NCBI RefSeq assembly: GCF_900102895.1
Contig: NZ_FNGD01000001.1
Span: 463,936-527,935, forward strand
DNA: 64,000 nt
Origin: Arthrobacter sp. ov407
GTDB lineage: Bacteria > Actinomycetota > Actinomycetes > Actinomycetales > Micrococcaceae
Reading direction: 5' to 3'
Made by a program: the position numbers and the translations under genes
The notes under the pieces: model-generated
The model's database searches: none
Told to the model about the DNA's origin: nothing
What the model saw: the letters and a program-made list of their open reading frames with translations, nothing else
Part shown: in pieces, positions 19,288 through 20,832 of the stretch
Numbering within the stretch: position 1 is the first letter of the stretch
Layout of the letters: each line of letters opens with the position of its first letter

Positions 19288-19314
19288 GACCCGGCCCCGC
19301 CCTGCTCCCCACCC

Positions 19315-19522
19315 GGGACATGCCCATTTTTCGTTCGCTCCGGTGGGCACAATGGCATTGTGTCCGGCGCAGGGCTCCTGCGCGGGACATGTCCAGCCCT
19401 CATGATTGGGCCTGTCCGGCACTACCCCCGGTCCCGGGACATGCCCATTTTTCGTTCGCTCGGTTCGGCGCGATGGCATGATGTCCGGCGCAGGGCTCCT
19501 GCGCGGGACATGTCCAACCCTC
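19315..19522. repeat. Left palindrome array: two 87-bp units with four GGACATGYCC sites
   Basis: Two direct units (19315-19401 and 19436-19522, period 121 bp) are almost identical except for a variable central patch. Each opens with GGGACATGCCCATTTTTCGT, contains a small hairpin GCGCAGG-N3-CCTGCGC and closes with GGGACATGTCC. Ten-base sites start at 19316, 19385, 19437 and 19506; the internal distance is 69 bp in both units. The array lies just upstream of the nuclease-like gene. Confidence 0.85.
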
Positions 19523-19622
19523 GCTCCGGCCACAGTTTTCCGCGGCCCTGGCCCGCCCCGAGTTTTCCACATGGCTCGGAATACGACTAGCCCGGTGCAA
19601 CCTGCGGCTCCACCATGGGTGA

Positions 19623-20432
19623 ATGGCCAACATCATCGATGTGCTCTCGAAATACGACGGCGTCGCCCGCGCCAAATACATTGCCGCGGCAGGGGTCTCC
19701 GAATATCAGCTCAAGTCGGCGATGGCCTCGGGATCGGTGGCCCGGGTAGCCCGCGGCGTCTATGCCTTGCCCGGTGCGGACACGCAGCTGATTTCCATAC
19801 GCTCGCTTCCGGCGGAGCCGGCGTGCATTACCGCGGCCCACTTCAGCGGGCTGTGGGTTCTCGACACCCCGACCCAGCCGCATGTAGCACTCACCCACAG
19901 CAGGAGCTACCAGGGCTTCGTCTGTCACCGGGCTGCCGTACCGCCGAGGCTCCTGGACACGGTCATCCAATGCTTGCGCTGCTTGCCCGAACCTGACGGA
20001 CTGATCATCGCCGAATCCGCCGTCGTGCTGAAGGGACTCCCGCTGGGTTCGCTGCGTCAGCGGCTTGATGGCCGAAATGACTCCCGGGAGCGCCGGATCG
20101 TATCGGCGATCGTCCCGCAGTCACAGTCGGTCATTGAGTGCCTGGCCCGGTTCCTTCTGCGGCGCGCCGGCTTCCACGTTGAATCGCAGGTCAACGTTCC
20201 GGGCATGGGACACCTGGACCTGATGGTCGATGGCCGTCTCGGCATCGAGGCTGACGGGGCCGGGTTCCACATGGACAGGACGAGCTTCGAAGAAGACCGG
20301 CGGCGTTGGAACGTAACAACGCGCCGGGGAATCCCGACCCTGATTGTGACCTACCAGCTGCTGAGGGACCATCCTGAGGATTTCATCACCATGGTCCGGG
20401 AAGCGCTGAACAGGCTGTCTGCCGCCGCCTAG
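19623..20432 (+). CDS. AbiEi-like HTH plus DUF559/Vsr-type nuclease-fold protein
   Basis: 269 residues. Residues 1-50 (GVARAKYIAAAGVSEYQLKS, then VARVARGVYALPG) match the winged-helix 'AbiEi antitoxin' N-terminus. Residues 175-262 form a PD-(D/E)xK fold of the DUF559/very-short-patch-repair type: HLDLMVDGRLGIEADGAGFH gives Asp199, Glu209 and Asp211, the usual D...ExD site, followed by His216 and a conserved DRRRWN helix and GIPTLIVTY strand. The active site looks intact. No toxin or partner gene is adjacent. The gene is isolated and bracketed by palindrome arrays on both sides. No ribosome-binding site is obvious before the ATG. Such solitary genes are common in Arthrobacter-like genomes as far as I recall; function unproven. 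Confidence 0.75.
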   Translation: MANIIDVLSKYDGVARAKYIAAAGVSEYQLKSAMASGSVARVARGVYALPGADTQLISIRSLPAEPACITAAHFSGLWVLDTPTQPHVALTHSRSYQGFVCHRAAVPPRLLDTVIQCLRCLPEPDGLIIAESAVVLKGLPLGSLRQRLDGRNDSRERRIVSAIVPQSQSVIECLARFLLRRAGFHVESQVNVPGMGHLDLMVDGRLGIEADGAGFHMDRTSFEEDRRRWNVTTRRGIPTLIVTYQLLRDHPEDFITMVREALNRLSAAA

Positions 20433-20436
20433 AGCC

Positions 20437-20460
20437 GGACGCGTCCAAATTTCGTGCGCC
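20437..20460. repeat. Palindrome unit directly after the nuclease gene
   Basis: GGACGCGTCC (20437-20446) begins four bases after the stop codon and is followed by AAATTTCGTGCGCC. Over 24 bp it resembles the opening of the left-flank units with about six differences, so the gene is flanked by related sequence on both sides. Confidence 0.6.
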
Positions 20461-20545
20461 CTTGCACCGCGATCCTTCACTTCACCCCAGCGCTGTGATC
20501 CTGTGCTTCGCCCTTGCAATGTGACCTTGCACTGCGGACCTTGCA
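20460..20545. repeat. Four copies of CCTTGCA
   Basis: CCTTGCA starts at 20460, 20512, 20525 and 20539; the last three are 13-14 bp apart and share the context CCTTGCACTGCG. It is a second, unrelated short-repeat family between the gene and the right palindrome array. Confidence 0.5.
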
Positions 20546-20563
20546 CTGCGCCCAGCCACCACT

Positions 20564-20796
20564 GGACATGTCCCTTGCTCCGTCGATTCACCGCTGGACA
20601 TGTCCCGCGCTGGCTGGCGGCGATGAGCATGGGGCATAAATGTCCAACGCCGGCAAGGAAGGATGGGCATGTCCATTGGTCGCGGGGGCTGCGGGTGGGC
20701 ATGTCCAACGTCGGCAACGAAGGATGGGGATATCCATTGGTCGCCGAGGTGGCGGATGGGCATGTCCACTGGCGGCGTGCTGCGCTGGGCATGTCC
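20564..20796. repeat. Right palindrome array: eight GGRCATGTCC-type sites every 29-36 bp
   Basis: Sites start at 20564 and 20596 (GGACATGTCC), 20632 (degenerate GGGCAT-AA-ATGTCC), 20665, 20697, 20758 and 20787 (GGGCATGTCC) and 20726 (degenerate GGGGATATCC). On the minus strand the GGGC-type sites read GGACATGCCCAT, the same as the left-flank units, so the left and right arrays are in opposite orientation. The spacing is close to three helical turns. The intervening bases are partly conserved. Confidence 0.85.
20641..20762. repeat. 61-bp tandem duplication within the right array
   Basis: 20641-20701 and 20702-20762 are consecutive 61-bp units with 52 of 61 bases identical, each carrying two palindromes. 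A third, partial unit begins at 20763. Confidence 0.8.
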
Positions 20797-20832
20797 ACCG
20801 GACGCCCGCAGCCAACCGTGCGCCGCAGCGGG

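What the first reader, a model, noticed from the sequence alone, without database searches (positions are those of the whole stretch)
19315..20800. Nuclease-like gene flanked on both sides by inverted GGACATGTCC palindrome arrays
Seen directly: an intact AbiEi-like HTH plus DUF559/Vsr-type nuclease gene (19623-20432) lies between a left array of four GGACATGYCC sites in two near-identical 87-bp units and a right region with nine related sites, eight of them spaced 29-36 bp. The left units begin GGACATGCCCAT on the plus strand; the right ones read GGACATGCCCAT on the minus strand, so the arrays face each other. A further copy starts four bases after the stop codon. Known precedent: RAYT transposases are flanked by inverted REP repeats they act on, and Vsr enzymes nick DNA. 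Inference: the locus may be a self-contained repeat-mobilising or repeat-maintaining nuclease system (a 'REPtron' built on a PD-(D/E)xK nuclease), or a nuclease whose own expression is controlled through the palindromes by its HTH domain. I know of no description of such a pairing.
Basis: partly seen in the sequence, partly recalled or inferred. Interest (0 to 1): 0.8.

Follow-up and report, generated by a model that had tools for sequence, protein, structure and literature searches.

The report
Nuclease gene with dispersed palindrome arrays
In one group of soil Arthrobacter bacteria a small DNA-binding nuclease gene sits between arrays of a short palindrome that is also scattered through the genome; close relatives without the gene have little of it, and several related nuclease genes carry flanking motifs of their own, which hints at what a large uncharacterised nuclease family recognises.

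Summary
The palindromes and gene are real (12 sites in the window, 0.69 expected). Arrays are not confined to this gene: the genome holds 228 sites (reversed control 22), in at least 18 intergenic clusters. Pairing with the nuclease is still well supported. (1) Of 198 genus genomes, 48 of 49 with a close ("A-type") orthologue have three or more palindrome pairs, against 4 of 149 others. (2) Four gene-less species nested in array-bearing clades have 2-4 pairs; their nearest gene-bearing relatives have 10-38. In two, gene plus both arrays are missing as one segment. (3) A diverged allele (45-52% identity) at the same locus is flanked by another palindrome, CTGCGCAG, with the same 17/23/40-bp half-site spacings. 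(4) Several paralogue groups carry their own motifs on both sides; one group does not. (5) Palindromes are conserved better than spacers. RAYT transposases are nearly absent. Best reading: a REPIN/RAYT-like system built on an AbiEi-type winged helix plus Vsr/EDxHD-like nuclease. Binding, cleavage and mobility are untested; independent contrasts are few (sign test p 0.06-0.125).

The parts
19312..19522 (.). Left array: four GGACATGYCC palindromes (19316, 19385, 19437, 19506) in two 90-bp units, spacing 69 within each unit
19344..19366 (.). Split site of the first 69-bp module: half-sites TGGGCA / TGTCCG with starts 17 bp apart
   Evidence: sequence, located by hand; aligned modules; gap statistics
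19563..19572 (+). TTTTCCACAT box, its TCCACAT starting 57 bp upstream of the start codon; shared by most family members examined; resembles the actinobacterial DnaA box TTGTCCACA
   Evidence: located by hand; 51 of 65 family members vs 0 of 361 control genes
19623..20432 (+). A-type nuclease, 269 aa: AbiEi-like winged helix (about residues 5-50) plus Vsr/EDxHD-like nuclease domain (about 168-267; D199, E209, D211 conserved)
20564..20796 (.). Right array: six exact GGRCATGYCC palindromes (20564, 20596, 20665, 20697, 20758, 20787), inverted relative to the left array
20624..20646 (.). Split site of the right 69-bp module (TGAGCA ... TGTCCA, starts 17 bp apart)
   Evidence: (located by hand)

Best explanation
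The gene and the palindromes form one system. The protein is a solitary AbiEi-type winged-helix protein fused to a Vsr/EDxHD-like nuclease. Inferred: it binds, as a dimer, the half-site TGGACA in two geometries, compact (TGGACATGTCCA) or split by 11 bp (one helical turn), and its nuclease, with host recombination, keeps and occasionally copies or resets these sites, as is thought for RAYT transposases and REPINs. Shown: arrays bracket the gene; they also form at least 18 clusters in this genome; within the genus they go with the A-type gene; the palindromes are conserved while spacers diverge; a diverged allele at the same locus and several paralogue groups carry different flanking motifs. Inferred only: binding, cutting, copying, and that the arrays serve the nuclease rather than the host.
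For: Co-occurrence in 198 genus genomes. Nested gene-less genomes G018, G043, G045, G132 with 2-4 pairs on a clpB tree; G045 keeps a 58-residue gene stub; G043 and G132 lack the whole array-gene-array segment, the left break lying inside the outermost palindrome. All 29 top-scoring orthologues examined have exact sites in the held flanks, 28 of 29 on both sides. B-type allele: 20 of the 23 CTGCGCAG in 236 kb lie in its flanks; half-site spacings 17, 23 and 40 in B, and the same three in A (see full report for the arithmetic). Motif-free test: an up/down shared word of 12 bp or more in A 16/23, B 10/20, E 4/8, F 3/5, H 2/3, G 0/6, control genes 6/361. Group-by-motif table. Exact-palindrome columns 97% identical vs 79% and 71% for other columns; 36/42 and 50/63 sites still exact. 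D199, E209, D211 the same in 41 distinct A and 18 B proteins of normal length. Fold: 3hrl Z 9.8, homing endonuclease I-Bth0305I 3r3p Z 8.7, AbiEi 6y8q Z 7.4. AbiEi precedent: it represses its promoter through two inverted repeats. No RAYT: over the cut-off in 1 of 198.
Against: No binding or cleavage data. Only five independent contrasts on well-supported branches (4.4 same way, 0 opposite, 0.6 no difference; sign p 0.0625-0.125; with a threshold of 7 pairs 3.4 same, p 0.125-0.25). G050 has a frameshifted gene but 39 pairs; G091, G092, G005 and G047 have unbroken genes but 2-5 strict pairs (the first three have degenerate local arrays). Arrays are largely at fixed orthologous loci, so active spread is not seen. 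In B, CTGCGCAG is on both sides in only 4 of 20 loci and the shorter TGCGCA in 11 of 20, and a strict B unit occurs only 0-3 times per genome, also in genomes without the B gene. Group G paralogues fail the up/down test. The fold matches are of moderate strength (best Foldseek E 0.08). Another gene lost together with the nuclease cannot be excluded, because whole gene contents were not compared.
Confidence: 0.57

Rival explanations
1. Regulator reading: the winged helix is a transcription factor that controls its own gene and a regulon through the palindromes; the nuclease domain is secondary.
For: AbiEi represses its own promoter through two inverted repeats. Some arrays lie upstream of groES and clpB. 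Palindromes are under constraint.
Against: 18 of 19 own-genome gaps with arrays lie downstream of at least one gene (11 tandem, 7 convergent, 1 divergent; counted by hand, which uses a simple gene finder of mine). Motifs also lie downstream of the gene in A, B, E, F and H members. Array length and presence at one place vary strongly between species. The acidic active-site residues are conserved.
Confidence: 0.2
2. Another, unidentified protein of these species binds or copies the arrays; the nuclease locus is just one of about 20 array sites and the co-loss reflects few shared events.
For: Arrays upstream of clpB are nearly as regular as those at the nuclease in the first set of 29 genomes. 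Few independent contrasts. G050 keeps arrays with a broken gene.
Against: The diverged allele at the same locus goes with another palindrome but the same spacings. Paralogue groups have their own flanking motifs. G018, without the gene, has no palindromes upstream of clpB.
Confidence: 0.15
3. Defence reading: a restriction- or homing-like nuclease that attacks incoming DNA, with the palindromes marking self DNA.
For: Matches to AbiEi models and a weak one to the Hhe anti-phage nuclease; Vsr/EDxHD-like fold.
Against: 228 largely clustered sites cannot mark a 4.3-Mb chromosome evenly. The gene is syntenic beside typA in the A- and B-type loci read; matches among 50,697 phage and 72,556 plasmid records are only 23-29% identical (one and four records).
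Confidence: 0.08

Closest known systems
REPIN / RAYT (TnpA-REP) systems
   Same: Single-copy, vertically inherited gene with a cluster of its own repeat type beside it; dispersed extragenic palindromes; different gene types pair with different palindromes (for RAYTs: passages). Decline of the repeats after loss of the enzyme is recalled for RAYTs, not seen in a call.
   Different: RAYTs are Y1 HUH transposases; here the enzyme has an AbiEi winged helix and a Vsr/EDxHD-like domain, and the genome has no Y1_Tnp match. The GTAG/CGTC foot of REPs was not looked for. Copying is unproven.
AbiE type IV toxin-antitoxin (AbiEi)
   Same: N-terminal winged helix matching AbiEi; precedent for inverted-repeat binding and autoregulation
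   Different: C-terminal domain is nuclease-like; sites also lie downstream of the gene and across the genome; no toxin gene follows directly
Vsr and EDxHD homing endonucleases (I-Bth0305I)
   Same: Similar predicted C-terminal fold; I-Bth0305I is described as dimerising on a target of nearly 60 bp
   Different: The gene stands alone between ordinary genes (no search for introns or inteins was made); dispersed palindromic arrays rather than one long target

Membership tests
REPIN/RAYT | Y1 (HUH) transposase, PF01797 | tested here: not met
   No match in G000; a match in 2 of 198 genus genomes, over the cut-off in 1
REPIN/RAYT | Palindromes beside the enzyme gene and dispersed, extragenic | tested here: met
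REPIN/RAYT | Repeat population depends on presence of the enzyme gene (recalled as a feature of RAYTs) | tested here: inconclusive
   Strong co-occurrence and four nested losses but only five independent contrasts, p 0.0625-0.125, and G050 as exception
REPIN/RAYT | Enzyme binds and processes its palindromes | not testable with these tools
   Needs biochemistry
AbiE TA system | AbiEi winged-helix domain | tested here: met
   AbiEi_4 E 1e-8, over cut-off; 6y8q Z 7.4
AbiE TA system | Two-gene operon with an AbiEii toxin | tested here: not met
   The next gene is an 82-residue SH3_Rv0428c-domain protein on the opposite strand, then ferredoxin
PD-(D/E)xK / Vsr / EDxHD nucleases | Fold and conserved acidic residues | tested here: met
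   D199, E209, D211 the same in 41 distinct A and 18 B proteins; 3hrl Z 9.8, 3r3p Z 8.7, 1vsr Z 6.0. Moderate only: MTES_1575 below cut-off, Foldseek E 0.08 and higher, model weak at 212-228
PD-(D/E)xK / Vsr / EDxHD nucleases | Cleaves DNA | not testable with these tools
   Needs biochemistry

The most novel reading that the evidence does not exclude
A whole family of solitary AbiEi winged-helix plus Vsr-like nucleases in Actinobacteria works as REP-type systems: each nuclease carries its own recognition palindromes on both sides, specificity switches by changing half-site letters while the 17/23/40-bp spacing stays, and one lineage (GGACATGTCC in Arthrobacter) has expanded into a genome-wide repeat population maintained by nuclease-driven recombination. 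This would be a second, unrelated enzymatic basis for REP-like elements.
Probability: 0.4. Interest if true: 0.92.

Novelty: new variant of a known kind. Interest (0 to 1): 0.8.

Why it matters
RAYTs are the enzyme family linked to REP-type repeats. A non-homologous nuclease with the same arrangement would show that such repeat-enzyme partnerships arose more than once. It would also give a first testable function, with predicted binding sites, to uncharacterised AbiEi_4 plus MTES_1575-type genes: 193 of 198 genomes of this genus have at least one homologue at E 1e-10 or better. The allele-specific palindromes make the recognition code directly testable.

Tried and rejected
RAYT/IS200-type transposase as partner: rejected. 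Arrays unique to the nuclease locus: rejected. GGRCATGYCC arrays at any paralogue: not at the two own paralogues nor in the flanks of the 22 paralogue loci (groups E-H). Horizontal gene-plus-array island: not favoured, since the gene is syntenic beside typA in A- and B-type loci and close relatives are absent from the phage and plasmid records searched. I first took the small downstream gene for a truncated acetyltransferase (recollection); homologues align over 61-82 of its 82 residues at the same place in most other genomes read and it is an SH3_Rv0428c domain; whether they are longer elsewhere was not tested. Known RNA family: nothing at E 1 or better. The first repeat scan of B-type flanks showed little; the short palindrome came out. 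Sequence search of solved structures: no match.

Prior art: searches (listings) and passages of six papers showed no description of these repeats or of this pairing. The library lacks most subscription papers.

Set aside or to be weighed: G073 and G135 are incomplete, gene state unknown (counted as non-A; G073 left out, G135 not on that tree). G192 and G132 show breaks in several genes, so probably assembly errors; G132 also has 7% contamination. G146's copy has lost part of the gene and carries E in place of D199; it was outside the length filter (250-290 aa), as were 2 of the 20 B proteins. Pair counts for searches were copied by hand. Motifs for B, E and F were read from the loci that one search then counts, so in-group counts there are partly by construction; one search is free of that, though 2 of the 10 long B words do not look like the palindrome. 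Members within a group are orthologues and not independent. Fisher p-values ignore relatedness. The non-A median printed came from placeholder names and is not used. One search lists 50 of its 56 pairs, so clusters beyond the listed part of the genome were not seen.

Full report
WHAT IS THERE. The 269-aa gene at 19623-20432 is flanked by GGRCATGYCC palindromes: four exact sites to the left in two 90-bp units and six to the right. The window holds 12 sites against 0.69 expected from shuffles. The genome holds 228 sites against 22 for the reversed pattern and 56 pairs against 0. The 50 pairs that one search lists fall in at least 18 clusters. In the loci that I read, clusters lie between called genes (one isolated site lies inside a gene, L033); by hand count, 11 of 19 gaps are tandem, 7 convergent and 1 divergent (gene calls by a simple finder of mine). 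Spacings of 29, 32 and 69 bp dominate. The 69-bp module has a recurring centre, TGGRCAT-N9-ATGYCCA. Inward half-site gaps are nearly all of two short kinds: compact (112) or 9 bp between GGRCAT and ATGYCC (19), i.e. TGGRCA and TGYCCA starts 17 bp apart.

WHO HAS IT. I scanned 198 genomes of the genus (all that the call returned, own genome included). 65 have at least one pair; no listed genome has a control pair. Homologues of the protein are nearly universal (193 of 198 at E 1e-10), but close orthologues ("A-type", 63-95% identity) are in 48, to which I add G146 (57-58%, broken copy); G050 and G192 are frameshifted. Pairs of three or more: 48 of 49 A-type and 4 of 149 others; the four are G018 and G045 (nested losses) and G073 and G135 (83% and 68% complete). 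Of 295 genomes drawn from the family, the 271 outside the genus have at most 2 pairs. Of 22 named A-type loci, 21 are labelled Arthrobacter and one Pseudarthrobacter.

SAME PLACE, TWO ALLELES. The gene lies between typA and a small SH3-domain gene before the ferredoxin gene fdxA (names) in A-type loci and in 20 of 20 loci with 45-52% identical copies ("B-type"). But B-type flanks are enriched for another palindrome: CTGCGCAG 20 times in 10.2 kb of flanks, of 23 in the 236 kb of those loci, in 13 of 20 genomes. It stands on both sides in 4 of 20, and the core TGCGCA in 11 of 20 (control genes 0 and 5 of 359). Half-site starts in B are 17 (12 times), 40 (11) and 23 (8) bp apart, with one end base of the core allowed to vary. 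In A the same distances follow by arithmetic: inward gap 9 gives 17 (19 times), outward gap 19 gives 23 (55 times), and same-strand half-sites are 40 apart 42 times; A also has 26, 29, 32 and 69. A strict B unit occurs 0-3 times per genome across the genus, also where no B gene was found, so B has no large population.

LOSSES. On a clpB tree of 58 genomes (pairs), G018 (no gene, 3 pairs, one contig, 99% complete) falls in a 100/99 clade with G086 (25) and G078 (38) and has no palindromes upstream of clpB; G043 (no gene, 2) is sister, 100/99, to G054 (15); G045 (4) and G132 (2) lie in a 99/97 clade whose gene-bearing members have 10-18 pairs; G128 (B-type, 2) is sister, 100/97, to G146 (broken A-type, 5). 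G045 retains the first 58 codons. Against G054, alignments of G043 and G132 stop inside the outermost left palindrome and restart 14-22 bp beyond the last right one. The four gene-less genomes have 2-4 pairs; 46 genomes with an unbroken A-type gene have a median of 22.5 and a minimum of 2. On independent pairs the direction is the same in 4.4 of 5 and opposite in 0, sign test p 0.0625-0.125: consistent, not significant. Against: G050 keeps 39 pairs with a frameshifted gene, and G091, G092, G005 and G047 have 2-5 strict pairs with unbroken genes; the first three show degenerate arrays around the gene.

ARE THE ARRAYS MOBILE? Mostly they stay. 14 of 30 first-listed clusters of other genomes lie beside the same genes as an own-genome cluster (one of them the nuclease locus). 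Upstream of clpB, 24 of 27 testable genomes of the first 29 A-type set have at least one exact site (2 not testable), while 0 of the 14 A-type genomes of the more distant clades do. At one place an array can be absent in close relatives (G046, G053). So arrays look like old residents with turnover. Between four close relatives, columns of exact palindromes are 97.1% and 96.7% identical against 79.2% and 70.6% for the other columns; 36 of 42 and 50 of 63 sites remain exact.

PARALOGUES. In 22 paralogue loci at 30-36% identity (20 from other genomes, 2 own) I read flanks for repeats. Group E carries ACTGGsCCAG (both sides in 3 of 8), group F GCAGAAATGC (4 of 5), and the two own paralogues each a private word on both sides. 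The longest word shared by 220-bp upstream and downstream flanks reaches 12 bp in A 16/23, B 10/20, E 4/8, F 3/5, H 2/3, G 0/6 and control genes 6/361. Each motif is almost confined to its group (partly by construction). A TCCACAT box 51-72 bp upstream of the start is present in 51 of 65 members (A only 13 of 23) and 0 of 361 control genes; with its context it resembles the actinobacterial DnaA box TTGTCCACA. What this box does is unknown.

PROTEIN. AbiEi_4 is above its cut-off, MTES_1575 below. D199, E209 and D211 are the same in all 41 distinct A and 18 B proteins of normal length. The model (mean pLDDT 76, weak at 55-63, 86-106, 212-228) gives no Foldseek match below E 0.08; VIA-align gives 3hrl Z 9.8, 3r3p Z 8.7 and AbiEi 6y8q Z 7.4, so the nuclease fold is likely but of moderate strength. 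AbiEi represses its promoter through two inverted repeats (passages of PMC3985639), a precedent for palindrome binding by this winged helix.

INTERPRETATION. I judge it about 0.8 likely that these palindromes are the cognate sites of this nuclease (allele switch with conserved spacing, nested losses, paralogue motifs), and about 0.57 that the system works like REPIN/RAYT, where RAYTs are single-copy, vertically inherited and next to their own REP type (passages of PMC3116915 and PMC8049555). It is not a RAYT system: the defining enzyme is absent. How sites are copied or maintained is open; cleavage followed by recombination from another array is the simplest proposal. On checking, the B-type identity range, the cluster count, the relatives' pair range and the dependence test were mended, and the confidence lowered slightly (0.58 to 0.57) because G050 and the weaker threshold are now told in full.

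Noticed in passing
window 19563-19572 and upstream of 51 of 65 family members: TCCACAT box (often TTGTCCACATAG), mostly 54-59 bp upstream of the start codon; 0 of 361 control genes have it. It looks like a DnaA box, so expression may follow replication.
   Followed up: partly
L031 4216-5586 (own genome C14): A gap of about 1.4 kb without a called gene lies between two palindrome clusters.
   Followed up: no
G161, G065, G051, G005, G032 (listings): Some palindrome pairs form near-perfect hairpins with about 17-bp stems, e.g. GGACATGCCCGCCCTTC..GAAGGGCGGGCATGTCC; possibly terminators made from array units.
   Followed up: no
L235, L236, L241, L245: In this clade about 2 kb, with a gene of about 400 aa where called, lies between the small membrane-protein-like gene and the nuclease position.
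   Followed up: no
G087:C1:1817578-1817634; also G046, G089, G185: Tandem 17-bp repeats starting with TGCGCA; relation to the nuclease not examined.
   Followed up: no
L028 4323-4628 (end of own contig C9): A transposase C-terminus (rve_2 integrase core, E 5e-23) directly beside an array at a contig end.
   Followed up: partly
G032:C169:14061-14423 and C38:8682-9044: The only Y1_Tnp matches over the cut-off in the 198 genomes scanned.
   Followed up: no
L246 7298-7853 (G016): A B-type nuclease copy that looks broken: two separate pieces of the protein.
   Followed up: no
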